Assembly (NCBI RefSeq): GCF_001467945.1 | Contig: NZ_LNYQ01000006.1 | Location: forward strand, 1-64,000 | Direction of reading: 5' to 3' | DNA from: Legionella parisiensis | GTDB lineage: Bacteria > Pseudomonadota > Gammaproteobacteria > Legionellales > Legionellaceae | DNA length: 64,000 bases | The notes under the pieces: model-generated | Seen by the model: the letters and a program-made list of their open reading frames with translations, nothing else | Database searches by the model: none | What the model was told of the DNA's origin: nothing | Shown here: positions 25,730-63,618 of the stretch, piece after piece | How the letters are laid out: the number at the start of each line of letters is the position of its first letter | Position numbering within the stretch: position 1 is the first letter of the stretch | Program-made: the position numbers and the translations under genes

Positions 25730-25731
25730 AT

Positions 25732-25747
25732 TTTACTCTTTCTTTAC
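25732..25747 (-). promoter_or_regulatory. CpxR-like direct repeat upstream of icmW
   Basis: On the minus strand GTAAA-N6-GTAAA lies just upstream of the icmW start (plus strand TTTAC 25732-25736 and 25743-25747). E. coli CpxR boxes are GTAAA repeats with similar spacing, and CpxR is known to regulate icmV and icmW in L. pneumophila. The site is very close to the start codon, so it could also be only an A-rich ribosome region. Confidence 0.35.
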
Positions 25748-25824
25748 TGTATTTCAGCGGATGGACGAAATCATTACTTACTACTATAGTATATTATGAA
25801 AGATAAAAGAAAGAAGTAAAAAAT

Positions 25825-26274
25825 ATGAAAAAGCAGTCGCGAATAGTTAGATTAGTTTCGAGAATTATTAATGTTCGTAGGTGGTTTGATTGGGAACGGA
25901 TGAAAGCATTTACTATGTATTTAGGAAATGGTTTTAAACGGTTATTTGTACCCAAGAAAAAAGTTGAAGGTGAATCATTCAACGAAGCAGTTCAGTTATT
26001 AAATCTTAGCGACGAAAGTATACTTATAAAACAAAAGTCTTTATTTCGATTGAGTATTATTATGGTGTTAGCTGCTCTTTTGATTTTGGGATATGCCGGA
26101 TATCAGCTTTTTTTTGGTTCAATAAAAGCGTTTCTTGTGAGCCTGATTGTCACGCTGATTGCGCTGGTTTTAGCCTTCCGCTACCACTTTTGGTACTATC
26201 AAATAAAAAATCGTAAGCTCGGGTGTACCTTTAATGAATGGTATAGGCAGGGGTTGTTTGGAGAAAAGAAATGA
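25825..26274 (+). CDS. icmV: Dot/Icm inner-membrane protein IcmV
   Basis: The 149 residues have a basic cytoplasmic start (KKQSRIVRLVSRIINVRRWF), a central region (KKKVEGESFNEAVQLLNLSD) and two hydrophobic helices at about 74-95 and 98-120. The tail is aromatic and basic, ending RQGLFGEKK. This matches IcmV, an inner-membrane part of the Dot/Icm machine needed for effector translocation in L. pneumophila. It overlaps dotA by 4 nt (ATGA), the usual coupling. Confidence 0.95.
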   Translation: MKKQSRIVRLVSRIINVRRWFDWERMKAFTMYLGNGFKRLFVPKKKVEGESFNEAVQLLNLSDESILIKQKSLFRLSIIMVLAALLILGYAGYQLFFGSIKAFLVSLIVTLIALVLAFRYHFWYYQIKNRKLGCTFNEWYRQGLFGEKK

Positions 26275-29200
26275 ATAAGTTGATAGTAACTCTACTTCTC
26301 CTTGTGTGTCCTGGTTTAGTTTTAGCAGATAATTCCAGTTCTTTAAGTTTTGCTCCTCCTGCTAGTGATTATTCTGTAGTATTTCTTGGCAATTTATTCG
26401 GGGTTGTAGATGGTGTTTTAAGTGGTACAGGCAGCCAAATTATGGGCAGTATGTTTGCCGTATTTAATGCTGCAGTTTTGGCGCTGGGGGGTATTATTAT
26501 CATGTATACCCTCTTGGTATCTACTATGAATACTGCCCACGAAGGGCAAATGCTTGGACAAAAGTGGTCCTCTATTTGGATTCCAATTCGATCTACAGTA
26601 GGTTTGGCTTTATTGATTCCCAAGGCCTCTGGCTATTGCCTGATGCAAATTTTTGTCATGTGGGTTGTTGTTCAAGGGGTTGGGGCAGCAGATAAGGTAT
26701 GGGATGCCGCGTTAAGTTATTTGAACCGTGGCGGGGTCATCATTCAAGCACAACAGATAAATCCAGCCCAAGCACTTATAACTGGCGATGATAAATCGGG
26801 AATAGGAGGTATTACAAAGGGTGCGATAAATATACTTTCTGGCCAAGTATGTATGTTGGGCTTACAGACACAATTGACCAATCTTCGTCAAAGTCTTCTT
26901 GATGCTCAGCAAAAAGAATCAGGAGATTGTTATAAAGCCTCTAAAGCTGGGGATACCAGCTCTGCAATAGCTAAGTTTTGCCAAAACACGGTTCCTGATT
27001 TTATTAGTACTGTAAACACAATTTCTGTTCAGAGTAAAGCTCCGGGGAACAGTGAGTGGACTGTTGAGATGCCTCATTTTGAGGATTCATCTTCACCTTA
27101 TTATTTTTTGAACGGGATATGTGGTTCTATTCATTGGAAGAGCATTACCAGTTCACAGGGATCAGCTTTTACGGATTCATCGGGAAAAAGTCTGATACCT
27201 ACGGATCCTACCGCGGGAAATAATGTTACACTCGGAAATAATACGCTAACTCCCGCAGAGATTGCTGCAACCCAGATGTCGCGAGCGATTGCCATCCAGC
27301 AAATGTATATGGATTTGTCTACAGTAGCTCGGACTATAGTGGGAAATGATCCACAAATGTCAACAACGAGTAATCCCTCTACAAAACCTTATACTCCTGT
27401 TGCGACACAACAATTCGGTGTGCCTTATAAACAAGATGGAACGATTTGTAGTGTTTATAATAAATCTATTGCTGATAGTAAAAATAATGAGGGAAGTTTA
27501 TGTATGACTTGGGGGCCTGTGCCGGGCTCTGCAGTTGGGGGGACGTTGTTTAACGGTAACGAGTTAACGAATGCAATTAATGATTATAACGGCATTATGA
27601 TGCCAACAGTTAATCTGGCGCGTCTAATCAAGAATTCTAAAGATGCGGAGAAAACCACTGACTTTATCAATAAAGCTAAGACTCAGGGATGGATTATGGC
27701 TGGTGCTTACTTCTTTAACTTGGTAGCGATTCAGGGCTCGTCTGGCACAATTGAAAATGCAAGCCAAACGGATTCGGACACCGGATTGGATAAAAGTAAG
27801 TTTGATCCTGCTGCAATAACTAGTCCATTTGTCCCTAGCAGTGATGGTAAAACTATGACCTGCGATAAAGGGAATATGACCGATCAAAATAAGGACTTTA
27901 CCCAATTATGTAAATGGTTTGGGCAAGATAATACCCAAGTACAGCAAATACAGGCATTAATTACATCAGATACTAAGAACCCACCGAAGCAGGCGCAAGA
28001 GATAAAGGTGCAAAGCGATGCAGCTTCATCTACAGTGTGGGGTTTTCTTAACAATTCACTCATGATATCAACCCCCGGCCAACCAGGAATTAAGCCACTG
28101 ACTTTTGCTAACTCAATTAATTTTAGTGTGAGTACCTCGTTATATCGATTAGAAAGACAAAACTTCTCCTGCGGCGAGGTCAAACCTTTCTTCTCTATTT
28201 GTCTGGGACAAATACTCGGAAACATATTTTATAATATTATCTTAGTGACCATATATAACCTGTTTCTTGATATATTTGGCCAGATTATCAATAGTGTGGT
28301 TTTAGCATTCCTGATGATTCCTTTGCAAGGAATGGCGACAATCTTTCAACAGGGTCTGCAAATTATCGCGCAGCCTGGGGTAAATCCTGTGGTTGCTTTG
28401 GCCAATATGGGTAATGAGTACATCAATTTTGCCGGTAACTTATGGATGCTCTTGTTGAATATGGCAGTATCGAGCGCATTAATCCCCGTATTTGGTATCT
28501 TCATTTTTGCCATGATGTCTTTGGCTATGCCGCTGGTGATAGCATGGGTAGGAGTCATGGTGAGCGTAGGTTTTACCACAGCCTATTACATTCCAATCTT
28601 ACCCTATATGATTTTCACCTTTGGCGCATTGGGTTGGTTAATTTCGGTAATTGAGGCAATGGTCGCTGCGCCTATTGTTGCCTTGGGTGTAACCCATCCG
28701 GAAGGGCATGAGGCTTTTGGTAAAGGTGAAGCTGCGATCATGATCTTGGTGAATGTATTCCTTAGACCTTCCATGATGATTATTGGCTATATTACTGCCA
28801 TAGCATTATCCTATGTGGGGGTGTGGGTTTTAAATGCTGGATATGATCAGGCTATAGCATTTATCCAACAGGAAAATCAAGATAGCGCTAAACTCGCGGG
28901 TGGAGTTTGGGCATATGGAGGTTCGGATTCACCTTCTGGTACTGGCGGATATACGGATTGGGCGGGAATATATGCATTCTTCTTCTCAATATTAACTTAT
29001 ACCACTTTGTATTTAGTAATCATACAAAAATCATTTACATTGATTTCTTATTTACCGGACAAAGTCTTGCGATGGATAGGTGGTACTCCTGAAAGCATAG
29101 GCCAAGAAACGGCGCAATGGGGTGAGGAAGTAAAAGGTAAAACTCAAGAAGCTGGCAAGGAAACCCAGACTGCGCAAGGCCAAATTGATAAGACTCTTGG

Positions 29201-29381
29201 CGGATATGGTGCTAAAGGTGTTGGCATGATTAAAGGTGCTTTGGGCAAAGGTGGTGGCGGTGGTGAGGTTTCTGCTCAAGGTAATGCTACGCCAAGCAGT
29301 GATAAGGAGGATGATAAGGGTAAATCCGGCGGTAAGGGTAAGAAAAAAGGTGGGGGAAATCTAGGTTCTGTAGGGAAGTAA
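26271..29381 (+). CDS. dotA: Dot/Icm polytopic inner-membrane protein DotA
   Basis: DotA is a polytopic inner-membrane protein, essential for secretion, which is itself released by the machine in L. pneumophila. The 1,036 residues begin with a cleavable signal peptide (about 1-19). Membrane segments follow near 60-85 and 110-135, then a large periplasmic domain (about 140-640), and a cluster of membrane segments between about 650 and 940. The tail (about 945-1036) is rich in Gly, Lys and Gln. The ordered pattern and position after icmV identify it. The long periplasmic loop looks fast-evolving. A good terminator follows. Confidence 0.97.
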   Translation: MNKLIVTLLLLVCPGLVLADNSSSLSFAPPASDYSVVFLGNLFGVVDGVLSGTGSQIMGSMFAVFNAAVLALGGIIIMYTLLVSTMNTAHEGQMLGQKWSSIWIPIRSTVGLALLIPKASGYCLMQIFVMWVVVQGVGAADKVWDAALSYLNRGGVIIQAQQINPAQALITGDDKSGIGGITKGAINILSGQVCMLGLQTQLTNLRQSLLDAQQKESGDCYKASKAGDTSSAIAKFCQNTVPDFISTVNTISVQSKAPGNSEWTVEMPHFEDSSSPYYFLNGICGSIHWKSITSSQGSAFTDSSGKSLIPTDPTAGNNVTLGNNTLTPAEIAATQMSRAIAIQQMYMDLSTVARTIVGNDPQMSTTSNPSTKPYTPVATQQFGVPYKQDGTICSVYNKSIADSKNNEGSLCMTWGPVPGSAVGGTLFNGNELTNAINDYNGIMMPTVNLARLIKNSKDAEKTTDFINKAKTQGWIMAGAYFFNLVAIQGSSGTIENASQTDSDTGLDKSKFDPAAITSPFVPSSDGKTMTCDKGNMTDQNKDFTQLCKWFGQDNTQVQQIQALITSDTKNPPKQAQEIKVQSDAASSTVWGFLNNSLMISTPGQPGIKPLTFANSINFSVSTSLYRLERQNFSCGEVKPFFSICLGQILGNIFYNIILVTIYNLFLDIFGQIINSVVLAFLMIPLQGMATIFQQGLQIIAQPGVNPVVALANMGNEYINFAGNLWMLLLNMAVSSALIPVFGIFIFAMMSLAMPLVIAWVGVMVSVGFTTAYYIPILPYMIFTFGALGWLISVIEAMVAAPIVALGVTHPEGHEAFGKGEAAIMILVNVFLRPSMMIIGYITAIALSYVGVWVLNAGYDQAIAFIQQENQDSAKLAGGVWAYGGSDSPSGTGGYTDWAGIYAFFFSILTYTTLYLVIIQKSFTLISYLPDKVLRWIGGTPESIGQETAQWGEEVKGKTQEAGKETQTAQGQIDKTLGGYGAKGVGMIKGALGKGGGGGEVSAQGNATPSSDKEDDKGKSGGKGKKKGGGNLGSVGK

Positions 29382-29499: not shown

Positions 29500-30858
29500 A
29501 TGCCTGAACTATCTGCGCCTAAAAGCACAATAACAAACCAATCTCAAGAAGCTGAAGACAAACTTAAAGCTTTGCAAAAAGCAAAAATGGATGAAGAGCG
29601 ATTTATACAAGAATTGTTTCTTTACTTGCAAAATATGCGCGATTCCATTTTAAAGTCACAAGTTGACCCACAAGCCCAATTAACTGACCTTGCTAGGGAT
29701 TGCGGTTATCCAGATTTACCTACTGCTTTAAACAGTGCAAAAAACACACGTGGGCAGACACCATTAGTTCAAGCCCTGCAAGAGCAAGATTTCTCTCTGG
29801 CAAGGGCTTTGCTCGATTCTGGAGCAGAGTATGACGCTCTGGCTCGAGAAGAATATGATATCGCAATACATAGTAAGCAGGGGCAACAGGCACTGCAGCA
29901 GCAAATAATTTCTCCTCCTGAAGGTTATAGTCCATCATCCCCCGAGAAATTGCATACAGTCAAAGAATTTGGACTCGTGCTAGGCTTAGTGATAACCAGT
30001 GTAGATGGGACGCCTTCTCAACGCGCTCATGTAGGACCTACATACCAATTGATGACTGATACAGTAAAGGATTACAGTCAGGGTCGTAGTAAGGAGCCAG
30101 AGAAGGGGGATTTCAAACAAATTTCAGATGCCTTCGTTTTTGCAAATAAAGCTGCAAAGTATGACTATAGTACTCCTGAAGGTAGTCCTGAAGCAGGAAG
30201 TGATCTGAGTAAACGAATAAAAGCGGGAGAGGTAACCAGTGTTCCTATTAATTGCAACGGACACGCCATGGGCTTATCTTTTGTGCCCGTTGAAGGAAAC
30301 CCGGATAAGACTTACTTAGTATTTACTAACCGCGGGATAGGATCTGGAGGAAAGCATGGAACTCAAATCTATGAGGTAGACAAGAAGGATATTACTCCCG
30401 ATTTTTTAAACAATGTAATGAGCGGTCATGATGAGGGGCGTTCACATGCGCAAATTATGGAGCAAATGAATCAGGTTACTAAAGGAAAAGATCCAGTATA
30501 TCACCTTGAGCAAAAACGACAAAAATATGATAATTGTACTATAGCAAATACGCGTGCGAATATTCATGGTGTTCTTCTATGCCAGGAAGCGAATCGTAAG
30601 GGTGGCTTTGAGAATGTGAATCAAGAAACAAGAGATGTGGTAAAACAACGCTATAAAGATTTTACTGATGATATGAGAAGTAAAAAAGTTCAACAACTGG
30701 AAAAAGCTTTAGAGAAAAACCCGAACGATGCAGACCTAATAGCTTTAGCTAAAGCATTCGTAGATAAACCTAACAGTAAATTTTCTGATACCTTGAAATC
30801 AAAAGTTGCTGAACAATCGGAACAATCTGAAGACTTGATCAGTATGAGGGCGCCTTAA
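29500..30858 (+). CDS. Candidate Dot/Icm effector: ankyrin repeat plus possible cysteine-protease-like domain
   Basis: A 452-residue soluble protein with no signal peptide. Residues 18-50 form a charged helix. Residues 82-115 fit one ankyrin repeat (RGQTPLVQALQEQ ... ARALLDSGAE). Residues 245-360 hold GHAMGLSF (His255), LVFTNRG (Asn277) and QKYDNCTIAN (Cys346), the order His-Asn/Asp-Gln-Cys seen in CE-clan cysteine proteases and acetyltransferases. That match is inferred by eye. The C-terminus (EQSEQSEDLISM) is glutamate-rich, as in many Dot/Icm substrates. TATAAT at 29460-29465 could be its -10. It lies between dotA and decayed DNA. No recognised name. Confidence 0.6.
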   Translation: MPELSAPKSTITNQSQEAEDKLKALQKAKMDEERFIQELFLYLQNMRDSILKSQVDPQAQLTDLARDCGYPDLPTALNSAKNTRGQTPLVQALQEQDFSLARALLDSGAEYDALAREEYDIAIHSKQGQQALQQQIISPPEGYSPSSPEKLHTVKEFGLVLGLVITSVDGTPSQRAHVGPTYQLMTDTVKDYSQGRSKEPEKGDFKQISDAFVFANKAAKYDYSTPEGSPEAGSDLSKRIKAGEVTSVPINCNGHAMGLSFVPVEGNPDKTYLVFTNRGIGSGGKHGTQIYEVDKKDITPDFLNNVMSGHDEGRSHAQIMEQMNQVTKGKDPVYHLEQKRQKYDNCTIANTRANIHGVLLCQEANRKGGFENVNQETRDVVKQRYKDFTDDMRSKKVQQLEKALEKNPNDADLIALAKAFVDKPNSKFSDTLKSKVAEQSEQSEDLISMRAP

Positions 30859-35058: not shown

Positions 35059-36195
35059 CTATTGTTGGTATTCTTTTGCTCCAGCAATAATTAATTTGTA
35101 TACCCGCTCACTGATAATACCCTGTTCAAACTTTGCTTTTGCATCCCAAGTCATCAGTTGGCCTTTTTGCCGCACTAATTTACGGGTGGCGGAGGTTACA
35201 TCATTAGGATCGCTTTCGAGTAAAATATCTCGGACTTCCTCATCAAAGACCAAATACTCTCTCAATGCAACCCTTTTTTCGTCTACAGTAGGTACAAGCT
35301 TTTGCCAAATACACAGTCGAATTGTTTCTAAAATATCGATAGTTCTTCCTAAACGCTCTTCACCAGAGAATGAGGTTACAAGACGACGCATGGTTTCTGC
35401 GACACCGGAAGTATGCAAGGTTGTATACACTGGGTGTCCAGTAAGTGCAGCTTCCAATGCAGCACTAATTGTTTCTGCGTCCCTACACTCACCGACCATG
35501 ATTAAGCGAGGTTTACGACGCAAAGCATTTCTTACTCCATCAGCAAAACTCGGTAAGTGGCGAGGAATTTCTGATTGGCTAACTACAGCCGATATGGTTT
35601 CAATTTCATCATAAACAAATTCGATCGGAGATTCATAGGTTAATACTTTACGGTTTGAGTCTTCTGTTTCGATTAAGTCGCGAATAATCGAGGCCAACAA
35701 AGTTGATTTACCTGAACCTGTTGCGCCTGTAATAAAGACAATTCCTTCCTGGGGTGCAACTGCTTCAAGCACATTATCAGGTAGATTCATGGTTTCAAGC
35801 CTGGGAGGGGTCGTTGGAATCGTTCTGAGAGTAATCTGAATGGCATCATGGCCTTCTACAAGGCATGCTGTCCCATTGACCCGATATCGATATCTTACAC
35901 CGCGATTAGGGCGGAATTCATAGTGAGTATCGATGTCTTTACCTGAAAGAAGCTGGGTTGTAGCGTTAGGTCCGTATATTGCATTAATTAAATCACCGAG
36001 TTCCGTATTAGACAAGCGACGGTTGGTAATCCGCAGTAGTTTGCCATAGACCTCTGCGTAAATAGGCTCGCCTGTTTGGATGGTAATGTCTGAAGCATTT
36101 AAACGTTCAGTATGCTCCAACATTTTATCCATAAAAAGCGGGGTAAACCGTGTTGGTTCATCGGCCATTAAATGTAAATTGGTATTATTGTTCAT
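35059..36195 (-). CDS. dotB: Dot/Icm secretion ATPase DotB
   Basis: A hexameric PilT/VirB11-type ATPase that docks on the cytoplasmic face of the Dot/Icm machine through DotO. The 378 residues show the Walker A GATGSGKST (157-165), Asp box (YESPIEFVYDEIE), Walker B-like RLIMVGECRD and His box (GHPVYTTLHT). The sequence tracks the L. pneumophila protein almost residue by residue. It is the last gene of dotD-dotC-dotB, 5 nt after dotC. The start is slightly longer than the L. pneumophila one, beginning MNNNTNLHLM. Confidence 0.98.
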   Translation of the reverse strand: MNNNTNLHLMADEPTRFTPLFMDKMLEHTERLNASDITIQTGEPIYAEVYGKLLRITNRRLSNTELGDLINAIYGPNATTQLLSGKDIDTHYEFRPNRGVRYRYRVNGTACLVEGHDAIQITLRTIPTTPPRLETMNLPDNVLEAVAPQEGIVFITGATGSGKSTLLASIIRDLIETEDSNRKVLTYESPIEFVYDEIETISAVVSQSEIPRHLPSFADGVRNALRRKPRLIMVGECRDAETISAALEAALTGHPVYTTLHTSGVAETMRRLVTSFSGEERLGRTIDILETIRLCIWQKLVPTVDEKRVALREYLVFDEEVRDILLESDPNDVTSATRKLVRQKGQLMTWDAKAKFEQGIISERVYKLIIAGAKEYQQ

Positions 36196-36200
36196 ACTTT

Positions 36201-37133
36201 CTATTGGCGAATTCTGTTATTATCGTTAACTGGCGCAATCGTAGGCTGCCAGGATTTATCTGTTATTATAATTTTAGAACGATTTGCCAATTTTTCCATG
36301 TTTTTGAACCGTTCCAGGGCATTTTCATCCTTGGACACCGCTGCCCGCCATTGTTCACTATTCACATTCAGAGCGGGTAACGCAGTAATTCTTAATACCC
36401 TATCATCAATATGAATTTCTGAAGAGTCTCCTGTTACACCTAAGTCTGTATGAGAGACAAAAGGAGGAGAAATCATATTCATGGCTAATAATTTTCTATA
36501 AAGAACCATTCCGCCAAAATCTTCTTTAATTCGGGCTATGTTTTCTTCCAAAATGGTATTTGCTTGATCAATACCATTTTTCCAGCCTTTCGCTACATAA
36601 ATGCACCATATTTTTTTCTCTACCTTGGTTTTAGGCAACAGAGTATAGTGAGGATATTCTGGCTGTACATAATCCAACCATAAGTATTGCCGCCAAGTGG
36701 GAGGAGTTGTTACAAAATGAGCTTGTTTTGCAACTTTATAAGTTCGATCAGAAATACGAATGGTTTGTGCATCAGCAAGGTTGAGAGTATTCCTACCTTC
36801 TAAGAGTACTGGAGGCAAAATGTTATGCTCTAGAATCAAAGAGTTAAAATCATAAATGGCATCGAGTCTGCGCGATTGTCTTATAAGATGCTCATCAATA
36901 ATTTTTGCTCGATTCGCCAGGCCCGCTTGAGCGCCGAGACTTAGGGCAGTTTCTTTTAAAGCAATTTGACGAATTTTACCCCTTTGCCTTTTATTTCGGT
37001 CCTTTACATTCACATTGGCCATAGCCTGCAGTCCTGCCAATGAGTTCGTATCACCCAGATATTTTGATGAGTGACATGCAAGCAGTAAAGCAGACAATAC
37101 AACAACTATTAAGCTACGAATAAATTTTGGCAT
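36201..37133 (-). CDS. dotC: Dot/Icm outer-membrane lipoprotein DotC
   Basis: An outer-membrane core-complex lipoprotein that, with DotD, places DotH in the outer membrane. The 310 residues start MPKFIRSLIVVVLSALLLAC with the lipobox LLAC (Cys20). They include GSLAGLQAMA-like and ISDRTYKVAKQAHFVTTPP segments, matching L. pneumophila DotC. I chose ATG 37133 because it gives a proper lipoprotein signal; the frame runs open further upstream to 37208. It overlaps the end of dotD by 20 nt. Confidence 0.97.
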   Translation of the reverse strand: MPKFIRSLIVVVLSALLLACHSSKYLGDTNSLAGLQAMANVNVKDRNKRQRGKIRQIALKETALSLGAQAGLANRAKIIDEHLIRQSRRLDAIYDFNSLILEHNILPPVLLEGRNTLNLADAQTIRISDRTYKVAKQAHFVTTPPTWRQYLWLDYVQPEYPHYTLLPKTKVEKKIWCIYVAKGWKNGIDQANTILEENIARIKEDFGGMVLYRKLLAMNMISPPFVSHTDLGVTGDSSEIHIDDRVLRITALPALNVNSEQWRAAVSKDENALERFKNMEKLANRSKIIITDKSWQPTIAPVNDNNRIRQ

Positions 37134-37602
37134 AGCGTAATTCAACAACCTGACTGTTAGGGTAAACGTGAATATAGGCTTTTTTACCAGCTTGGTAATC
37201 AATATCACGCAGGATTTCAGCTAAACTTTCATCTTTAATATTAAGACTAATTAAAACTGGAATTGAAGGCGCTTTTCCTAAAATGCGAAGCCTGAAGTGG
37301 GCTGATTTGGCAATACGAGCAGTTAATTCTTCAATAGGACCAGACCAATCCACACTTGCCCTGGCTTGCAAGTTATATGAATTAGGTATTGTGAGTGTGT
37401 TGTCGACAGGCGGAGGTAGAATTACTTTTTCAACTCGTGCCATTTCATGCATGGAATCGCTTACAGATACTGCTGCTTCTGCTAGTTTAATTGTGGCATC
37501 ATCACTAGGATTGTTGACTGGTGACTTTTTAAAAAGTACTCCATGTTTACAACCCACAAGCAGGACTGAGGCAATAAATAGCATGAGAAGCTTGTTGTTC
37601 AT
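37114..37602 (-). CDS. dotD: Dot/Icm outer-membrane lipoprotein DotD
   Basis: A 162-residue lipoprotein with signal MNNKLLMLFIASVLLVGC (lipobox LVGC, Cys18), followed by a disordered linker and a C-terminal secretin-N0-like domain (about 70-160; ISLNIKDESLAEILRDIDYQ). That fold is known for DotD. It heads dotDCB, transcribed leftwards. The promoter lies in the 133 nt between it and the palindrome at 37736. Confidence 0.97.
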   Translation of the reverse strand: MNNKLLMLFIASVLLVGCKHGVLFKKSPVNNPSDDATIKLAEAAVSVSDSMHEMARVEKVILPPPVDNTLTIPNSYNLQARASVDWSGPIEELTARIAKSAHFRLRILGKAPSIPVLISLNIKDESLAEILRDIDYQAGKKAYIHVYPNSQVVELRYAKIYS

Positions 37603-46493: not shown

Positions 46494-46910
46494 CCTCAAC
46501 TTAGTGTAAGAATCGAGACTGGTCGTCGATAAAGGGTATTCTGCTTTGTTAAAAGCAGGAAAAAATGCTCGACAAGGTTGTCATCCCTGCGTATGCAGGG
46601 ATCCATCTTTCAAAAAATAGCCCATAGTTTCAAATTAATCTGCTGCGATTTTAATACTCATATACTGTGCGTGCGCTGCGCTTCCGTGCTCGAAAATCAG
46701 GTCATTTTGGCTCAAACTAGAGAAAGTAAACAGAGCCTATAATTCTTAAAATATTCCTGCTGCGTTTTTTCATAAGCCTTTTACTATTGTTGCTAAATAT
46801 AATATCATTGCATTAACAAAGTTCTTACTCGCCTCTTTTTGTTAAAAATAACAATAAAAAATCAATTAAAATTGTCGAAAAATGGCGCAATTAGTAGGAG
46901 CAATTCAAAC
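46494..46910. other. 417-nt gap before the NRPS-like gene
   Basis: Holds the ATCCCTGC / GCAGGGAT hairpin at 46583-46602, AT-rich DNA and the long leader of the NRPS-like gene. In the leader the coding frame is open from a TTG at 46839 but lacks a ribosome site there. No other gene is visible. Confidence 0.5.
46583..46602. repeat. 20-bp ATCCCTGC palindrome
   Basis: ATCCCTGC (46583-46590), loop GTAT, GCAGGGAT (46595-46602): a perfect 8-bp stem. It resembles common bacterial intergenic palindromes; no T-run follows. Confidence 0.6.
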
Positions 46911-49900
46911 TTGAGTTTCTCACCCGAATATAACACTATGACATTGCATCAATTCTTTGAACAATCCGTTGACAATTATCCAGGCAATATTGCTTTGATT
47001 TGTGATAATGCATTTATTTCCTACCAGGAATTAGAAAATCGTGCGAATCAATTAGCTCATTATCTCTGTGAGAATAAAATATCCAAGGGAAGCATTGTAG
47101 GTATTCTACTAGAGCGCTCTGTCGAGTGCTATGTTGCTATACTCGCCACTTTAAAAACAGGTGCAGCTTATGTACCTATTGAAGTGGATTATCCAGACGA
47201 ACGTATTAACTATATTTTTTCTGATCTGCACTTTGATGCAGTTTTAACTTCCTCTACTCAATTGGCCCAAAAAGATCTGACATGGCCAACTTTTTATGCA
47301 GTTGATAAGCTTGCCAAAGAAATTTCCAACTATTCCACGCATAGACTAACTACCCAGGGCGATTTAAGCGCCGATGATTTGTGTTATATCATTTACACTT
47401 CGGGATCAACAGGAAGGCCTAAAGGAGTAGAAATTACGCAACGCAGTATTTGCCATTATGTTGAAGTTGCGAGCAAACTTTATGATATAAAGAGTAATGA
47501 TAAGGTATATCAAGGCTTTTCATTGGCATTCGATGCCTCTTTAGAAGAGTTTTGGATGGCCTTTGCCAATGGTGCTAGCCTTGTTGCATGTACTGCCAAA
47601 GAGGTACGATCTGGTTTAGGCCTAATTTCTTTTTTGCAACAACACCGGGTCAGTGTTTTTTCTACCGTCCCTACTTTATTGTCTTCCTTAGAGGGACAAT
47701 TACCTGATCTGCGTCTTTTAATCTTAGGGGGAGAGACTTGCCCACCCAGTCTGGTTAAGCGCTGGAGTAGAGCAGGTCTGCGCATTATCAATACTTATGG
47801 TCCCACGGAAGCAACGATTATTGCTACTTATGCAGAGTGTTATCCTCAGCAAGAGATAACTATCGGTAAACCTTTACCTGGTTATGAAGTACTTATAGTG
47901 GATGAACATGTGCAGGAAGTAGCAGAGGGTGAGGAAGGTGAACTTTGTATTGCTGGAGTTGCCTTGGCTCGTGGTTATATCAATCGGCCTGAGGCTACAG
48001 CAGAAAAATTCGTTTTAAATCCTGTAAATAAAAATCAACGTTTATACCGAACAGGTGATATAGTTTCAAGAGATTCTAACGGTAACCTGCATTTTGCAGG
48101 ACGTGTGGATGAGCAAGTCAAATTGCGTGGATTTCGCATTGAATTAAATGAAATTGAAACCGTTATAATGCAATATGCCGGAATTAAACAGGCAGTGGTT
48201 TCTTTGCAAATATTCGAGCAACCTATTCTAGTTGCTTATTTGATTCTTGACACACACCACGTGTTTGATGCAAATGCATTGAAAGCTTTTTTAAGATCAC
48301 ACTTACCAGATTACATGCTTCCGTCGTTAATTGAAATTTTGGAAACTTTTCCAGTTTTAGCTAGTGGTAAGGTCAATCGCAAAGAACTTCCTAAACCGCT
48401 ACAACAAAAAGAAGATAGTCTTTATAAGGCACCTGAGTCTGAATTGGCTAAGGAAATTGCAGGTGTTTGGGAAAAAATTTTCGATTGTAAGAATATTTCT
48501 GTAAATGCAGACTTCTTCTATGATCTAGGTGGACACTCATTACATGCTGCAAAAGTGATTTCTAATTTGCGCAAAATATCTGCCTTAAAAAACATCTCAA
48601 TTTTGGATTTATATAAAAATCCAACGGTTGCTCAGCTGGAGCAGAAGTTTAGTAACCCTTATCTCAATCCGCACTTTGATGAAAATCAGTCTGCTCCCCA
48701 AAAGTATAGTGTGCCACAATGGAAATACTATTTATGTGGTATTGGCCAGTTTTTTGGTTGTTTACTGCAATATGCGGTAGGCACGTTACAACTGCTTGCG
48801 GTTATTTTGTGTTACAGCTGGGTTAGTTCTGAGTATTCTATTATTTCCAGGGAATCACAGCTTGCGTTTTTAGCATTATTTTTATCAATGCCAATTATTT
48901 CGTTATTTATTACGATCTGTTTGAAATGGATTTTGCTGGGGCGAGTGAAACCTGGACAATATCCTCTTTGGGGGTGGTTCTATTATCGCTGGTGGTTAGT
49001 GCAAAGACTGCAAAAGAATTTGTTTTTAGCTAAATTTTTAGTTGGCTCGCCATTGGCTGCTATTTATTATCGCCTATTAGGAGCCAAAATAGGTAAAAAT
49101 TGTTATTTGGGATCCATGCAGATTTCAGCCCATGACTCACTAACTATAGGAGATAATACTTCAATTGGCGCTGATTGCAGACTTAATGGTTATATTGTTG
49201 AGGATGGATGGTTAAAAATAGGAACTATCAGTATCGGTACTAATTGTTATGTAGGCTCCCGTGCAGTGGTTGGGTTAAATACCCAGATTGAAGACAATGC
49301 GGTTCTGGATGAAATGTCCATGCTGCCCGATCACAGTTTAATTCCTCAAGGAACCTATTTTTCAGGTTCTCCCGCGGTACCTGGTATAACTCCGGTTGAC
49401 CATATTACCCGGAAAAAAGTTACCATTAAAGAATCGAGCGTGTTGGAAAATACTCTTTTCGGTATTTTACATTACTTAGGCATCGTTTTTGTCATGGGGA
49501 TATATTACTTATGCTTAATCCCCTCAATCTCTTTGATTAGCTATTACTATGATCAAGGCCATTATTTTACGACTATGTTTTTTGCCATACCTTTGGGGGC
49601 AATTCTCTTTTTAGGCTTATATTATTCATCCATTGTGCTCTGTAAAAAGATAATTATAGACAAGGTCAAACCCGGTAATTATCCCTTAAAAAGCTTGTAT
49701 TATTTCCGTCATTGGATCATGGTGAAATTATTGGACGTCGATGAAATCTCAGTTATGGCAGATACTTTGTATATGCCAGCTTTTTTAAGATTATTGGGAG
49801 CAAAGCTGGGTAAAGGGGTAGAAATGGGAGAAACACCTCATATTATTCCCGACTTAGTAACTATTGACGAAGGTGGTTTTACTGCCAGTTCAGTCGCTTT

Positions 49901-50918
49901 AGCCTGGCCGCATGTATACAATGGCTTCATTTCTTTTGCTCCAGTAGCGATCGGACGCAGGGCTTTTGTTGGGAATGTAAGCTTATTGCCAGCAGGTAAA
50001 TCTATTGGTGAAGGTACTTTATTAGGATGCTTATCAGTGACTCCACCAGATGCCAAAGCAATGGAACCTTATTCTGCATGGCTAGGTTCTCCAGCTGTTT
50101 TTCTACCAAAACGAGAGTTATTTGCGGGCTATTCTGATAAAGATACATTTTATCCATCCAAAAAACTCTATTGCATGCGTTTATTCATTGAGTTTATGCG
50201 AATTATTTTGCCATCAACATTTTCATTGATTGGGCTATTTAATATGCTTTATGTATTGGATTATATGTTGAGCGAATATTCCTGGTTTGTTACCGCCCTG
50301 GTTCTTCCGCCAACAGAAATGTTTATTACTGTCTGTCTGGTTGGAATATTGGTAGCTCTGAAATGGGGAATTTTAGGTAAACTAAAACCTTTAACTAAGC
50401 CTATTTGGGACTCTTTCATTTGGAAAAATGATGTGATTGAATACTCATATAACTACTATACGAACCCACATTGGACCAACAAAGTTTTAGGAACCCCTTT
50501 TGCGCTTTGGGTACATCGTTGTCTGGGAACTAAAGCGGGGAAAAGGGTTTACACAGATAGTGCGGAATTTTCTGAGTTTGATTTAATTACCATTGGTGAT
50601 GATGTGTGCATTAATGCTGAGACAATAATCCAAACTCATCTCTATGAAGATAGAATATTTAAAGTATCTCATGTCACTATTGGAGCTGGCTGTAATGTTG
50701 GTGTAGGTTCAATTGTTCTTTACAACACGTTAATGGAGAACAATTCTTCTTTAGGCAGTCTTTCTTTACTCATGAAAGGGGAATGTTTACCCCAAAATAC
50801 CCATTGGGCTGGTATTCCTGCACAATCTACAGCTCTTGGACTGCCACATCAGCATGTTGTTTCACAACCCGCTACAACGAGAGAGGTTCCAGAGGAAGCA
50901 CTTCCTGAATTATTGTAG
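46911..50918 (+). CDS. Membrane-bound NRPS-like synthetase (epsilon-poly-L-lysine synthetase architecture)
   Basis: A 1,335-residue protein. The A domain (about 10-500) has A3 YTSGSTGRPKG (162-172), A5 NTYGPTEATI (294-303), A7 YRTGD and A10 NRKELP. A thiolation domain follows, with phosphopantetheine Ser543 (LGGHSL). Three tandem blocks come next, each a pair of membrane helices plus a soluble module with hexapeptide-like repeats (IGDNTSIGADC, IGRRAFVGNVS, IGDDVCINAET). There is no condensation or thioesterase domain. This is the Pls architecture (terminal module TIGR02353 type), in which one amino acid is activated and polymerised at the membrane. TTG 46911 follows AGGAG at 10 nt; ATG 46938 is the alternative. 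Product unproven. Confidence 0.85.
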   Translation: MSFSPEYNTMTLHQFFEQSVDNYPGNIALICDNAFISYQELENRANQLAHYLCENKISKGSIVGILLERSVECYVAILATLKTGAAYVPIEVDYPDERINYIFSDLHFDAVLTSSTQLAQKDLTWPTFYAVDKLAKEISNYSTHRLTTQGDLSADDLCYIIYTSGSTGRPKGVEITQRSICHYVEVASKLYDIKSNDKVYQGFSLAFDASLEEFWMAFANGASLVACTAKEVRSGLGLISFLQQHRVSVFSTVPTLLSSLEGQLPDLRLLILGGETCPPSLVKRWSRAGLRIINTYGPTEATIIATYAECYPQQEITIGKPLPGYEVLIVDEHVQEVAEGEEGELCIAGVALARGYINRPEATAEKFVLNPVNKNQRLYRTGDIVSRDSNGNLHFAGRVDEQVKLRGFRIELNEIETVIMQYAGIKQAVVSLQIFEQPILVAYLILDTHHVFDANALKAFLRSHLPDYMLPSLIEILETFPVLASGKVNRKELPKPLQQKEDSLYKAPESELAKEIAGVWEKIFDCKNISVNADFFYDLGGHSLHAAKVISNLRKISALKNISILDLYKNPTVAQLEQKFSNPYLNPHFDENQSAPQKYSVPQWKYYLCGIGQFFGCLLQYAVGTLQLLAVILCYSWVSSEYSIISRESQLAFLALFLSMPIISLFITICLKWILLGRVKPGQYPLWGWFYYRWWLVQRLQKNLFLAKFLVGSPLAAIYYRLLGAKIGKNCYLGSMQISAHDSLTIGDNTSIGADCRLNGYIVEDGWLKIGTISIGTNCYVGSRAVVGLNTQIEDNAVLDEMSMLPDHSLIPQGTYFSGSPAVPGITPVDHITRKKVTIKESSVLENTLFGILHYLGIVFVMGIYYLCLIPSISLISYYYDQGHYFTTMFFAIPLGAILFLGLYYSSIVLCKKIIIDKVKPGNYPLKSLYYFRHWIMVKLLDVDEISVMADTLYMPAFLRLLGAKLGKGVEMGETPHIIPDLVTIDEGGFTASSVALAWPHVYNGFISFAPVAIGRRAFVGNVSLLPAGKSIGEGTLLGCLSVTPPDAKAMEPYSAWLGSPAVFLPKRELFAGYSDKDTFYPSKKLYCMRLFIEFMRIILPSTFSLIGLFNMLYVLDYMLSEYSWFVTALVLPPTEMFITVCLVGILVALKWGILGKLKPLTKPIWDSFIWKNDVIEYSYNYYTNPHWTNKVLGTPFALWVHRCLGTKAGKRVYTDSAEFSEFDLITIGDDVCINAETIIQTHLYEDRIFKVSHVTIGAGCNVGVGSIVLYNTLMENNSSLGSLSLLMKGECLPQNTHWAGIPAQSTALGLPHQHVVSQPATTREVPEEALPELL

Positions 50919-53812: not shown

Positions 53813-55030
53813 ATGGAACTATTAAATAGGAAATTCTTTGCTAATTCTGATGTGACAGAAATAAAAGCTTTAACCGGTCTTCGTGGATATGCTGCACTTT
53901 GGGTTTTTTTCTTACATATCACGTGGGGAGGGGGGCAAGGTGATACTTATGCAATGAAACTTGCCAGTTATGGTGCCTCGGGTGTTACAGTATTTTTTGT
54001 GCTGTCCGGTTTTATCCTTTCCTATGTATATTCTTCTAAATTCGCAAAAAAAACAGTCGGATACCGTAGCTTTATGTTTGCTCGCTTTGCGCGAGTATAT
54101 CCCCTTCATTTAGTGACATTGATACTTTATGGTGCTTTTGTATGGGTTGGAATTGATCTGCAGCCGAGTAATACATGGAAAACATTCATATTAAACCTTA
54201 GTCTACTCCACGCATGGGGGTTCACAGAGCTCCTTTCCTGGAATCAACCCTCATGGTCAGTAAGTACCGAGTTTTTCAGCTATCTGCTTTTTCCGCTATT
54301 CATCCGCAAACTTGCTAAAGCTCCTCTGTGGGTATTGTGTATCATTATGGCAATTATCTACTCTCAGATAAGGTATTCTTTTTATGATGCTCTTATCAAT
54401 TGGGGAATAGCACATCAATTTCTAAGTGCAGGCCGTCAATTGACATTTTCTCATGGAATTTCTCTAGTGCTATTTTTCTGGGCATTCCTCTGGGGGTGTG
54501 TCGTGTATTTTCTGGTAGAAAAGCTCAAAAAATGGGCGAGCAATAGCGTCGTTTATGATATTGTGACTCTCGTTGGTGTGTCTCTTATTCTGAATTTTTA
54601 CTGTGCTACATTATGGCAAACCATAGTTCCTGCCACATTGATTATCATGGGCCTTTCCAATAACTCCGGACTTTCTAAATTGCTTTTTGGGAATAAGTTA
54701 GCATTTTTCATGGGCAAAATTTCGTATGCTTTTTATTTATCTGCACTCATGGTCCAAGTGATTTTACATCCATTCCACTTGCCCTTTGTACTTGATTTAG
54801 CGGCAGCTATTGTCGTCGCTACGCTGCTTCATTATTTCGTTGAGCAACCTGCTCGCGAGCTATTAAGAAAGAAAATGAATTATTCGTTGAATAATGAGAA
54901 AAGCGCGACCAGTGCCCTTGCACTGCAAAACGAATTGGATAGTCCATCACTTACACGCCAAGGGTGGCTAGCACCTCTAGTTCATTATGTTTTTTTTAAG
55001 CAGAAGAAAAATGTAACGCACTCCCTATAA
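53813..55030 (+). CDS. Membrane acyltransferase 3 family protein (OafA/YrhL type)
   Basis: A 405-residue polytopic protein with about ten hydrophobic helices. It opens IKALTGLRGYAALWVFFLHI, holding the family R-x10-H motif (Arg24, His35). FFVLSGFILSY and a FARFARVYPLHLVTL segment follow; these are hallmark features of acyltransferase 3 proteins that O-acetylate LPS, capsule or peptidoglycan. The C-terminal cytoplasmic tail is polar (about 355-405). Partner and substrate are unknown. It is preceded by a broken duplicate of itself. Confidence 0.9.
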   Translation: MELLNRKFFANSDVTEIKALTGLRGYAALWVFFLHITWGGGQGDTYAMKLASYGASGVTVFFVLSGFILSYVYSSKFAKKTVGYRSFMFARFARVYPLHLVTLILYGAFVWVGIDLQPSNTWKTFILNLSLLHAWGFTELLSWNQPSWSVSTEFFSYLLFPLFIRKLAKAPLWVLCIIMAIIYSQIRYSFYDALINWGIAHQFLSAGRQLTFSHGISLVLFFWAFLWGCVVYFLVEKLKKWASNSVVYDIVTLVGVSLILNFYCATLWQTIVPATLIIMGLSNNSGLSKLLFGNKLAFFMGKISYAFYLSALMVQVILHPFHLPFVLDLAAAIVVATLLHYFVEQPARELLRKKMNYSLNNEKSATSALALQNELDSPSLTRQGWLAPLVHYVFFKQKKNVTHSL

Positions 55031-60632: not shown

Positions 60633-62096
60633 TTAAAGCTCTGCTTTAATGGAAGTGGTTTCATTTTTACGGCAATGCTCATCAATGTAATCAATGCAAA
60701 CCTTTAATCCCTTGTCAACTCCGTTCATAGCTTTTAATTGATTCACCGCTTCACTTGCTGTTTTATTCCTGACATCTTCTGCTGTTTCTTTGTCTGCTTG
60801 TTTTACTCTGGCAAGTATTGTTTTTACCTGCTTTAAATGGGTATTAAATAAATGACTCATAGTGGTGTGATGATCACAGTAGTCTGTAAGTATTGTTTTT
60901 GTCAGGGCTAATGGATCGCGTTCTAAGTGATGCTGATGCATTAGTTCATAGGAGAGATAACTGGTAATTTCATGATTCTCTGCGTGCTGTGCAATTTGAA
61001 ACGCATTTTTAATGAAAGAAAGAGATGGTTTATTCTGCTCATCTAAATTGCACAGCAGCTGGACAACATCAATGCGCCCTATTCGGGCAGCAACGAGCAG
61101 CAAACTACCAGCAGTTCTTTTGTCGGGCGGCATAAAACTGCAAAGTGCCTTAAAAACGTCCTTTGGAGGATTTCCCCCTACTGTCGTTAATGCATAGGTT
61201 AATGCACAATTCATTGCGTTTTGAGAGGGTTTACCCCATTGGTCTTGAATGAAATAATTCAAAAGCTGTTCCCACTCTCCATATTGGGCTGATAGGATGA
61301 AGTGTTTATTGGTCCGTCTCTGTAGAATATATAATGCTTTATCCACTAGCTCTTTATCAGGTACATTTGCCGGTGGATGTATGTTTATAATGGCTTTAAT
61401 TGCCTCACATATCTTAGAAGAGGACTCTATATCACCATGACGTTCATATCGTATCATCCTTAATAGAGCGAGTTCTAAGCTTGAATTGATTGCTCTTTTA
61501 GTAGGGTGGGGTGCTGGAGGAGCTAAGCGTGCAAGAGCGATGACAGATTCCCAATTCTTGGTTTGAAGTGCTGTTACTGTTGCAAGCTCGAATACTCTGT
61601 CCACGGCGATATGACTTGGTTGACGAGTTAGGATAGTCTTGTTTAAAAGAGCGAACACAAAATCCCAATTACTTGTTTTAGTTGCTGTTAATCCTGCATT
61701 CGCTAATATCTTGTCTATAACTTCCTGACTTGGTTTACGTGCTGGAGCAGTTAAGTTTGCGATGGCGATAAAAAATTCCCAATTATTGATTTTAGCCGCA
61801 ACCATTGCCGCTTGTTCTAACGCGTAATCTGTAATTTTTTGACTTGGTTGAGGAGTTGTTGATTTTAAGCTGCATAACATGATGACAATGTTCCATCGTT
61901 TCTTAGCCTCTTCCGTTGAAACTCGAGATGCTGCAGCTATTGCTGCTTCTACTGCTTTGTCAATCACTTCGGGCCGAATTTTGGCCATGGCTAAAGCTGA
62001 TTTTATATACTGACGGCTGTTTATGGTCCGAAAAAGTCCTCTGGAGGCGAGGTCTACTAGTCTTACTTCTTGTGAATTAAATTCAATTTCTGGCAT
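60633..62096 (-). CDS. Helical-repeat protein with 38-residue units, candidate effector
   Basis: A 487-residue soluble protein. Between residues 84 and 197 three units of exactly 38 residues follow one another, each starting PSQ/PSH and carrying an NWE/NWD core (KINNWEFF, KTSNWDFV, QTKNWESV). A less perfect unit precedes and another follows. About residues 325-390 look ankyrin-like (LLLVAARIGRIDVVQLLCNL). A charged coiled region ends in KNETTSIKAEL. Such repeat proteins are common Dot/Icm substrates in Legionella, but no homologue is named here. It is divergent from the 62272 gene. Confidence 0.6.
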   Translation of the reverse strand: MPEIEFNSQEVRLVDLASRGLFRTINSRQYIKSALAMAKIRPEVIDKAVEAAIAAASRVSTEEAKKRWNIVIMLCSLKSTTPQPSQKITDYALEQAAMVAAKINNWEFFIAIANLTAPARKPSQEVIDKILANAGLTATKTSNWDFVFALLNKTILTRQPSHIAVDRVFELATVTALQTKNWESVIALARLAPPAPHPTKRAINSSLELALLRMIRYERHGDIESSSKICEAIKAIINIHPPANVPDKELVDKALYILQRRTNKHFILSAQYGEWEQLLNYFIQDQWGKPSQNAMNCALTYALTTVGGNPPKDVFKALCSFMPPDKRTAGSLLLVAARIGRIDVVQLLCNLDEQNKPSLSFIKNAFQIAQHAENHEITSYLSYELMHQHHLERDPLALTKTILTDYCDHHTTMSHLFNTHLKQVKTILARVKQADKETAEDVRNKTASEAVNQLKAMNGVDKGLKVCIDYIDEHCRKNETTSIKAEL

Positions 62097-62271: not shown

Positions 62272-63618
62272 GTGCGTGATTTAGCTAAATATGAAGCGAT
62301 ACGTGATTTTATAAGAACTTTAAATGAGCAAGAAATAATTGACCTCATCATTAACTTAATGCCCAATGAAATACAAAAAAGAACTCGGGACTTATTTAAC
62401 TCCGGATTATCCTTTGAATCAAGTGATATACAAAATGCCCTTAAATTACTTTTATATTTAAAAGAAGTAAAAAAAATTGATATTCTCGATGATAGATGGC
62501 TGGATATAGCAATAAAATTTCCTCTTTATCAGGAAAAAATAAAAAAATTAACTGACATAGAGCATCATATTTTAGTTAGCGACCCGATAGTATCTTGGTT
62601 ACTTAGTAGTGAGGTTTTTCAACTTTTAACCTCCAGTTCTTCAAAAACCACGCTCCATAAAGCAGCTGAAAGAGCACAAGAAACCGATGCAGTTTCTCGC
62701 GTCGGCACAAATAGGGCAAAACAAATTATTGGCAAAACAGTGGCAGTAGCACCAGAAGTTTATCATTGCAACGTTGCATTGATTAAAATAACGAATTCAG
62801 AAGGAAGAAATGAGACCTTTATGGTGCATTTAAATCCTAAACGAATAACCTGCCCAGGCGAATACCAAGACGAGAATGGTTATGTACTGTGGCTCGATCA
62901 GTATAGTGGAACCCCTGAATCATCTGATAAAGCTTATTATGATGCAATAAAGTCATTAAAGCCGGGGGATAAAGTAGATATTAAAATGTTTAGAGGCAGC
63001 ATTTCTTTTGATGACTCAAATGAAATAGAGCGATTAAAAGATAAATTAACTCAAATGAAAGTTCAGCATGATATAAATATTATTCATGTACCTTCGAGTA
63101 CAACACGTTATAATCTTGCGTATAGTCCGGCTGAAGATAAAGTTCTAATTTGGCGAGGGCATCACAGAATAAAGGATAGTTTTTTGGAAATTAGTCATAT
63201 TTTCTCTAAAAATCCGTCACTCCATGAAAAAGGAATAACTTCTTTTAAAAATCGTTTCATTGATTATTATCAAACGCTACATGCAGCAGGTTTTACTCAG
63301 GAAGAAGCAGCTAAAAAAGCAATTGAAAAATATATTTCTGTGAGAGAGTCTTGGCTAGAGTATAAATTGCCTTTTCGAGGAGGATTGAAACTCTTTTTTA
63401 CCAGAGAGCAGACACAAATAAATTTAGGTATTGCCCGACAGTTAATTCAAGGTGTTTCCAACATAGAAAGTTTAGATACTGATAAATTGAGCAATGGGCA
63501 TCTGAGAGAGTTAATTACGGTCATTAATAATGATAAGAAGGATTATTTAGAATTAAAAGAGAGGCTTTCTTCGGAGTACAATGAGAAGGACCGCTCACTA
63601 AACCCAGACCTTATATAA
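62272..63618 (+). CDS. Hypothetical protein, candidate effector
   Basis: A 448-residue soluble protein with no family I recognise and no signal peptide. The first ~120 residues are helical with a mixed charge pattern. Residues about 150-280 look like a mixed alpha-beta domain (TVAVAPEVYHCNVALIKI, MVHLNPKRITCPGEY). The last ~100 are helical and acidic (YLELKERLSSEYNEKD), similar in feel to the glutamate-rich ends of Dot/Icm substrates. Start GTG 62272. It shares its 175-nt promoter region with the divergent repeat protein. Confidence 0.55.
   Translation: MRDLAKYEAIRDFIRTLNEQEIIDLIINLMPNEIQKRTRDLFNSGLSFESSDIQNALKLLLYLKEVKKIDILDDRWLDIAIKFPLYQEKIKKLTDIEHHILVSDPIVSWLLSSEVFQLLTSSSSKTTLHKAAERAQETDAVSRVGTNRAKQIIGKTVAVAPEVYHCNVALIKITNSEGRNETFMVHLNPKRITCPGEYQDENGYVLWLDQYSGTPESSDKAYYDAIKSLKPGDKVDIKMFRGSISFDDSNEIERLKDKLTQMKVQHDINIIHVPSSTTRYNLAYSPAEDKVLIWRGHHRIKDSFLEISHIFSKNPSLHEKGITSFKNRFIDYYQTLHAAGFTQEEAAKKAIEKYISVRESWLEYKLPFRGGLKLFFTREQTQINLGIARQLIQGVSNIESLDTDKLSNGHLRELITVINNDKKDYLELKERLSSEYNEKDRSLNPDLI

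What the first reader, a model, noticed from the sequence alone, without database searches (positions are those of the whole stretch)
46911..50918. A Pls-type membrane NRPS in a Legionella chromosome
Seen: one adenylation domain, one thiolation domain (Ser543), then three repeats of two membrane helices plus a hexapeptide-type soluble module, with no C or TE domain and 1,335 residues. Known: epsilon-poly-L-lysine synthetase (Pls) and relatives have this order and make homopolymers of a basic amino acid at the membrane. Inference: this gene may make a cationic polymer or a short peptide chain, which would be unexpected in an intracellular pathogen's core region. I know of no described product for it in Legionella.
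Basis: partly seen in the sequence, partly recalled or inferred. Interest (0 to 1): 0.85.

Follow-up and report, generated by a model that had tools for sequence, protein, structure and literature searches.

The report
Predicted poly-lysine synthetase in Legionella
This gene encodes a membrane enzyme of the family that strings single amino acids into positively charged polymers; its pocket looks like that of the enzyme that makes poly-lysine, and it sits at a conserved chromosomal place in most Legionella relatives examined, though no product has been shown.

Summary
Window 46911-50918 (+) encodes one adenylation domain, one carrier domain (Ser543) and a membrane part. TIGR02353 (Pls/PosA family) matches at 542.6 bits, cut-off 423.1. 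An AlphaFold2 model of residues 600-1335 (pLDDT 89.7, pTM 0.87) shows two long helices plus a beta-helix, three times.

The pocket code is DAESIGTIIK. A Kitasatospora Pls beside an M1 peptidase gene reads DAESIGTVVK, and S. albulus Pls (PDB 7wew) reads DAESIGTVV at the nine positions covered. The same alignment returned PosA's published code exactly. L-lysine is the likeliest substrate and epsilon-poly-L-lysine the likeliest product. Both are inferred.

The gene is single copy, over the cut-off in 32 of 45 genus genomes, and has dlh and/or panC in the flank in 31 of 33 fetched genus loci. dN/dS is low. Two genus copies are split. The Legionellaceae rows form one clade. It is a new member of a known family; searches found no paper giving it a product in Legionella.

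The parts
46911..50918 (+). whole gene, Pls/PosA-family synthetase, 1,335 aa (start TTG 46911 or ATG 46938)
46956..48395 (+). adenylation domain (about res 16-495)
   Evidence: Pfam AMP-binding 16-356 and AMP-binding_C 414-487; TIGR01733 over cut-off
47532..48371 (+). span of the ten substrate-pocket positions D208 A209 E212 S251 I271 G273 T295 I303 I304 K487 (code DAESIGTIIK)
   Evidence: PosA control returned DMEHNGTVSK
48456..48644 (+). thiolation (carrier) domain, Ser543 at 48537-48539
   Evidence: Pfam PP-binding 516-578
48717..48935 (+). first helix pair (res 603-675)
   Evidence: model helices 4-42 and 48-76; hydropathy
49068..49400 (+). beta-helix module C1 (about res 720-830)
   Evidence: Pfam Hexapep 773-799
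49440..49655 (+). second helix pair (res 844-915)
   Evidence: model helices 245-282 and 286-316; hydropathy
49788..50105 (+). beta-helix module C2 (about res 960-1065)
50160..50372 (+). third helix pair (res 1084-1154)
   Evidence: model helices 485-523 and 526-555; hydropathy
50517..50825 (+). beta-helix module C3 (about res 1203-1305) with the QTHLxEDR motif; His1243 at 50637-50639
   Evidence: His, Leu, Asp and Arg of the motif invariant in 24 of 24 rows of A1 and 49 of 49 of A2; of 78 rows printed all keep the His, one (L103, Paenarthrobacter) lacks the Leu and Arg. That the His is catalytic is inference

Best explanation
The gene encodes an epsilon-poly-L-lysine synthetase of the Pls/PosA family. 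The adenylation domain activates L-lysine with ATP (inferred from the pocket). Lysine passes to the phosphopantetheine arm on Ser543, put there by a 4'-phosphopantetheinyl transferase of the cell (one such gene found). The membrane part, three fused beta-helix modules, joins the carrier-bound lysines one by one through the side-chain amine; His1243 of module C3 is the likely catalytic residue (inferred). A short cationic lysine polymer is made at the inner membrane and probably released outward (inferred). Shown here: domains, predicted fold, family, pocket letters, conservation, low dN/dS. Inferred: substrate, linkage, product, release, role.
For: TIGR02353 over cut-off. Model pLDDT 89.7, pTM 0.87 with the family's architecture. 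Code DAESIGTIIK against DAESIGTVVK of a Kitasatospora Pls with an M1 metallopeptidase gene beside it and D,A,E,S,I,G,T,V,V at the nine positions covered of S. albulus Pls, PDB 7wew (read by eye from the alignment). Control: PosA read as DMEHNGTVSK, as printed in PMC10522769. A copy with diaminobutyrate transaminase and aspartate kinase beside it has F at position 2, DFECLSAVTK. 44 of 45 readable rows (47 given, 2 gapped there) keep DAES[IV]GT[VI][IV]K in the window and Legionellaceae. 0 of 9 other over-cut-off adenylation domains in the same genome carry that code. C3 motif kept. One PPTase gene found. dN/dS 0.06-0.115 in 8 of 10 comparisons, the other 2 saturated.
Against: No chemistry was seen. 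In PosA the change M218A raised lysine use nearly ten-fold but ornithine was still preferred (PMC10522769, passages), so Ala at position 2 alone does not prove lysine. By whole-protein identity the window is not nearer to the Kitasatospora Pls (31.4%) than to PosA (34.5%), and it does not group with the Kitasatospora Pls in the tree, whose long branch makes its place unsure. No M1 peptidase frame is seen beside the gene; two are elsewhere in the genome. The same kind of code is common in uncultured lineages whose products are unknown. Foldseek against solved structures gave no match at E <= 0.001.
Confidence: 0.72

Rival explanations
1. It is a cationic homopolymer synthetase of the same kind but with another monomer, such as ornithine, beta-lysine or a larger basic amino acid.
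For: Pocket codes predict imperfectly: a Bdellovibrionales homologue showed modest activity with arginine and not with the diamino acids tested (PMC10522769); positions 8 and 9 are I here and V in the Pls copies compared.
Against: The codes known for ornithine, in a diaminobutyrate context and for beta-lysine differ at several positions (DMEHNGTVSK, DFECLSAVTK, DGESISVVNK); V to I is mild.
Confidence: 0.13
2. It activates lysine but hands it to another acceptor, such as a lipid or an envelope glycan, or makes only capped dimers or trimers, so no free homopolymer forms.
For: The modules loosely resemble acyltransferases that modify small acceptors (no match at E <= 0.001); no immediate neighbour for export or degradation was seen in the genus loci or shared among the other Legionellaceae loci clustered.
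Against: The characterised members named in the passages read make polymers of one diamino acid, one of them described as branched (PMC10522769, PMC8117764, PMC4668381); posA also stands alone (PMC10522769).
Confidence: 0.11
3. The gene is a decaying relic without function in this genome.
For: Two genus genomes have the frame split (L. longbeachae NCTC11477 copy and G020) and 13 of 45 have no match over the cut-off.
Against: The window's own frame is open over 1,335 codons, with dN/dS 0.06-0.115 and the pocket, carrier and C3 motif letters kept.
Confidence: 0.04

Closest known systems
epsilon-poly-L-lysine synthetase (Pls) of Streptomyces albulus, PDB 7wew (adenylation domain)
   Same: A-T plus six-helix, three-module C-terminus (PMC8117764, PMC4668381, passages); same pocket letters at 7 of the 9 positions covered, V to I at the other two
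   Different: 31.4% identity to the Kitasatospora Pls used as stand-in; no peptidase neighbour; Gram-negative host; not grouped with that Pls in the tree
PosA, delta-poly-L-ornithine synthetase of Acinetobacter baumannii
   Same: Same family and architecture, Gram-negative host, stands alone without a gene cluster (PMC10522769, passages); 34.5% identity
   Different: Pocket DMEHNGTVSK instead of DAESIGTIIK
gamma-poly-diaminobutyrate and poly-diaminopropionate synthetases
   Same: Same family and architecture (PMC4668381, PMC8117764, passages)
   Different: Phe at pocket position 2 (PMC10522769; DFECLSAVTK for the copy with transaminase and aspartate kinase beside it); no such genes beside the window gene
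hexapeptide (left-handed beta-helix) acyltransferases such as serine, maltose and galactoside acetyltransferases
   Same: Loose fold similarity (E 1.3e-3 and above)
   Different: In the window three modules are fused in one chain with helix pairs

Membership tests
Pls/PosA family (TIGR02353, cationic homopoly-amino-acid synthetases) | TIGR02353 score over the curated cut-off | tested here: met
   542.6 against 423.1 bits
Pls/PosA family (TIGR02353, cationic homopoly-amino-acid synthetases) | One adenylation and one carrier domain, no condensation or thioesterase domain | tested here: met
   (Pfam, E <= 0.001); for Ser543
Pls/PosA family (TIGR02353, cationic homopoly-amino-acid synthetases) | Six membrane helices in three pairs with three related soluble modules | tested here: met
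   (prediction, not experiment)
Pls/PosA family (TIGR02353, cationic homopoly-amino-acid synthetases) | Asp and Glu at pocket positions 1 and 3, which bind the two amines | tested here: met
   D208 and E212; role from PMC10522769
Pls/PosA family (TIGR02353, cationic homopoly-amino-acid synthetases) | Makes a homopolymer of a diamino acid | not testable with these tools
   needs chemistry
epsilon-poly-L-lysine synthetase (Pls) | Lysine-type pocket (Ala at position 2; DAESIGTVV in 7wew) | tested here: met
   DAESIGTIIK; two V to I changes
epsilon-poly-L-lysine synthetase (Pls) | Groups with known Pls in a tree | tested here: inconclusive
   does not group with the one Pls-context row (Kitasatospora), but that row has an end branch of 1.83 and the program warns that its place is unsure
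epsilon-poly-L-lysine synthetase (Pls) | Peptidase gene (pldII) in the operon (accompanies pls in PMC8117764; not strictly defining; that PldII is of the M1 type is recalled) | tested here: not met
   neighbours are a dienelactone-hydrolase-like gene and panC (the name panC is recalled); M1 peptidases only elsewhere
epsilon-poly-L-lysine synthetase (Pls) | Polymer joined through the epsilon amine | not testable with these tools
   needs chemistry

The most novel reading that the evidence does not exclude
Epsilon-poly-L-lysine, known as an actinobacterial antimicrobial and food preservative, is an inherited product of the family Legionellaceae, kept by selection at a fixed chromosomal place in most of the genus and lost in some species, and used outside the cell against amoebae, fungi or rival bacteria, or at the surface of the bacterium inside its host cell.
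Probability: 0.3. Interest if true: 0.7.

Novelty: new member of a known kind. Interest (0 to 1): 0.42.

Why it matters
If it makes epsilon-poly-L-lysine, a genus of intracellular bacteria carries a conserved, single-gene route to a membrane-active cationic polymer. The paper on Legionella secondary metabolism (PMC5126622) does not name such a product: the term 'lysine' has 0 occurrences in its main text. It would give a concrete, testable product to a conserved Legionella synthetase, widen the set of Gram-negative polymer makers beyond PosA, and pose the question how a bacterium that lives in amoebae uses or tolerates a polycation.

Tried and rejected
Rejected: that the C-terminal half is chance hydrophobic sequence. 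Held unlikely: recent arrival in this genome by transfer; distances follow rpoH+dlh+ftsX with Mantel r 0.861, 0 of 2,000 permutations reaching it, in 23 of the 33 fetched genus loci, those with all markers and a usable frame, and the Legionellaceae rows of the tree form one clade. Older transfer into the family is not excluded. Considered: that the neighbours dlh (Pfam DLH) and panC are partners; both are present in all 45 genus genomes, 13 of which lack a match over the cut-off, so no link is claimed. Considered: Cluster F of PMC5126622 (single module with A, T and C domain, the most prevalent) could be this gene; the text does not allow a decision.

Led nowhere: promoter and terminator scan (13 found, 14.4 expected from shuffles; 3 found, 3.5 expected). 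Neighbour clustering (clusters of three or more loci printed) found no shared immediate neighbour among the Legionellaceae loci given (L073-L085, L117 and the window); three of them share a frame three or four genes away. Papers: searches listed no paper that assigns a poly-lysine or NAPAA synthetase to Legionella (NAPAA is antiSMASH's class name, recalled); the single paper holds the terms only in unrelated places. Two Legionella genome papers that ran antiSMASH have 0 occurrences of NAPAA in their main text (PMC13229132, PMC11828895; passages). Searches gave nothing that I used.

Rows dropped: Embleya (L098, longest frame only 897) and Streptantibioticus (L099, the longest-frame rule took a wrong frame); 11 of 80 genome-contig loci whose best frame is 1,150 aa or less; 7 of 60 ranges with stops, and of the 53 clean ones 48 entered A2 with the window; from the tree 22 of 32 fetched congeners, L086 and seven further Legionella loci (95 rows, quick method, no mixture model, long-branch warnings). 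A1, from which the patterns came, was given 24 of the rows then held.
Full report
What is there. The frame at 46911-50918 (+) encodes 1,335 residues. It matches TIGR02353, the Pls/PosA family model, over residues 620-1304 with 542.6 bits against a curated cut-off of 423.1. Pfam finds one AMP-binding domain with its C-terminal subdomain, one carrier domain and a hexapeptide repeat, and lists no condensation or thioesterase family at E <= 0.001. The carrier serine is Ser543. The start is TTG 46911 or ATG 46938; in some congeners the first start codon of the frame is the ATG.

The membrane part. Hydropathy gives three groups of hydrophobic stretches in the C-terminal half, and the three soluble modules are homologous by profile comparison with probabilities of 100, 100 and 99.8%. 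A model of residues 600-1335 built with 48 relatives has mean pLDDT 89.7 and pTM 0.87, with two long helices followed by beta-helix strands, three times; the last 26 residues are below 50. Foldseek lists many beta-helix acyltransferases among its best solved matches (the first row is a chain of respiratory complex I), but none reaches E 0.001 (best 1.3e-3), and no solved relative of the whole part appears in the 50 rows shown. The PosA authors had already modelled that enzyme's C-terminus as three packed left-handed beta-helices with approximate three-fold symmetry (PMC10522769, passages), so the architecture is not new here. I did not measure the packing of the three modules in my model.

Which amino acid. 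The ten pocket positions were read from an alignment; their places in the fold are recalled from the GrsA numbering. The window gives DAESIGTIIK. As a check, the alignment with added references returned DMEHNGTVSK for A. baumannii PosA (L097), exactly the code printed in PMC10522769; the L097 adenylation domain is identical over the 412 residues aligned to PDB 8g95, named there a dimodular nonribosomal peptide synthase. A Kitasatospora copy with an M1 metallopeptidase gene beside it gives DAESIGTVVK. PMC8117764 describes pls in an operon with a peptidase gene, pldII (passages); that PldII is an M1 peptidase is recalled. The Kitasatospora adenylation domain matches PDB 7wew, epsilon-poly-L-lysine synthase, and that chain's own letters in the alignment read D,A,E,S,I,G,T,V,V at the nine positions covered. 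A Streptomyces copy with diaminobutyrate transaminase and aspartate kinase beside it gives DFECLSAVTK. PMC10522769 proposes that position 2 sets chain length: Phe for the short monomers, Met for ornithine, Ala for lysine. The window has Ala. In the same genome, 0 of 9 other adenylation domains over the TIGR01733 cut-off have this code. Against this: Ala at position 2 in a PosA mutant raised lysine use nearly ten-fold without making lysine preferred, and many uncultured lineages with unknown products share this kind of code.

Conservation in the family. Of 47 rows (the window and 46 Legionellaceae loci), 45 were readable at the pocket; 44 of 45 keep DAES[IV]GT[VI][IV]K, and one (L085, genome G068) has Tyr in place of the first Asp. 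The C3 motif letters His, Leu, Asp and Arg are invariant in 24 of 24 rows and 49 of 49 rows. Of the 78 rows printed all 78 keep the His; one (L103, Paenarthrobacter) lacks the Leu and the Arg. By analogy with hexapeptide acyltransferases, His1243 is proposed as catalytic; that analogy is recalled, not tested.

Distribution. The window's genome has one copy over the cut-off (a second, weak match of 41.4 bits lies elsewhere). In the genus, 32 of 45 genomes have a match over the cut-off; 30 of these have an open frame over 1,300 residues, one lies at a contig end (G028, 708) and one has an open frame of 1,139 (G011). In the family, the genus included, 45 of 143 are over the cut-off. In a sample of the class drawn from a larger group, 8 of 369 are, three of them from the window's own family.

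Locus and history. Of 33 fetched genus loci (the window's included), 31 have dlh and/or panC in the flank; 23 have dlh within 1.5 kb, 24 have panC within 1.5 kb, 19 both. In the other two (G003, G017) the gene lies elsewhere, and the dlh-panC interval holds other frames. Matches to dlh and panC are present in all 45. In 12 of 45 genomes no piece of the gene passed E 1e-40. In 11 of these 12 both flanking genes lie on one contig, with about 50 bases to about 2.4 kb between them; the intervals of about 2 kb hold an AccC-like frame and mostly an ATPase-like one (names recalled from the sequence). One of them (G023) has a 36-residue match at 50% identity to the end of the protein there (E 7e-4), which could be a remnant or chance. 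Distances follow those of rpoH, dlh and ftsX (Mantel r 0.861, 23 loci, 0 of 2,000 permutations). In a 95-row tree the Legionellaceae rows form one clade (30 rows, support 100), nearest to a gammaproteobacterial metagenome sequence with code DAESIGTIIK. The tree is a quick one with long-branch warnings.

Selection and breakage. dN/dS is 0.06-0.115 in 8 of 10 comparisons; 2 were saturated. The L. longbeachae NCTC11477 copy and the G020 copy are split between frames; sequencing error cannot be excluded.

How it probably works. Lysine is adenylated, loaded on Ser543 and joined to further lysines by the three fused modules in the membrane. One phosphopantetheinyl transferase gene was found in the genome, in line with the single Sfp-type enzyme reported for Legionella (PMC5126622, abstract). 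In four distant relatives examined, of nine loci in that neighbour cluster, the gene directly downstream matches phosphopantetheinyl transferase families, one of the four below the gathering score; that fits a carrier that must be loaded. Substrate, linkage, product, export and role are inference.

What is known. The family is described: Pls, PosA and others. Of PMC10522769 I saw the first of eight parts and passages; of PMC8117764 and PMC4668381 passages; of PMC5126622 the outline with abstract, sections 13, 16, 17 and 20, and passages. In PMC10522769 the word Legionella has 0 occurrences in the main text; its supplement was not looked at. The 'Cluster F' of PMC5126622 may or may not be this gene. 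No paper that assigns a poly-lysine or NAPAA synthetase to Legionella was listed, in an open-licence library only.

Verdict. A real, uninterrupted, conserved member of a known enzyme family, with lysine as the most likely monomer. Moderately interesting: the family is known, the host and the conservation are the news, and the product is untested.

Noticed in passing
L111:5203-9208 (L. longbeachae NCTC11477) and L056:6211-10207 (G020): These copies are split between reading frames, while 30 of 45 genus genomes have an open frame over 1,300 residues. Could be decay or sequencing error.
   Followed up: partly
L187:2477-2575 (G023): A 36-residue stretch, 50% identical to the last residues of the synthetase, stands between dlh and panC in a genome without the gene; possible remnant or chance.
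   Followed up: no
L196 and L197 (G003, G017); L042, L053: In two congeners the synthetase lies away from dlh-panC, and that interval holds AccC-like and ATPase-like frames instead (names recalled).
   Followed up: partly
L085 (G068): One Legionellaceae copy has Tyr for the first pocket Asp and LGVHS in place of LGGHS at the carrier serine; perhaps altered or inactive.
   Followed up: no
L125:9127-9765, L141:7816-8511, L144:8980-9693, L165:3811-4527: A phosphopantetheinyl-transferase-like gene directly follows the synthetase in distant bacteria and archaea (L165 below the gathering score).
   Followed up: partly
window 46583-46602: A near-perfect palindrome around CCCTGCGTATGCAGGG between dlh and the synthetase; the pattern searched was found once in the whole genome, without mismatches allowed.
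   Followed up: partly
window 53813-55030: An Acyl_transf_3 family gene near panB, seen in 5 of 33 fetched genus loci; some flanks were too short to tell.
   Followed up: no
window 23804-29381 and 35059-37602: Frames that look like Dot/Icm secretion genes (DotA, IcmV, IcmX, DotB, DotC, DotD; names recalled from the sequence, no call), with a methyltransferase-like and an aldolase-like frame between them.
   Followed up: no
window 29500-30858, 60633-62096, 62272-63618: Three of five window frames given to Pfam, 448-487 aa, had no match at E <= 0.001.
   Followed up: no
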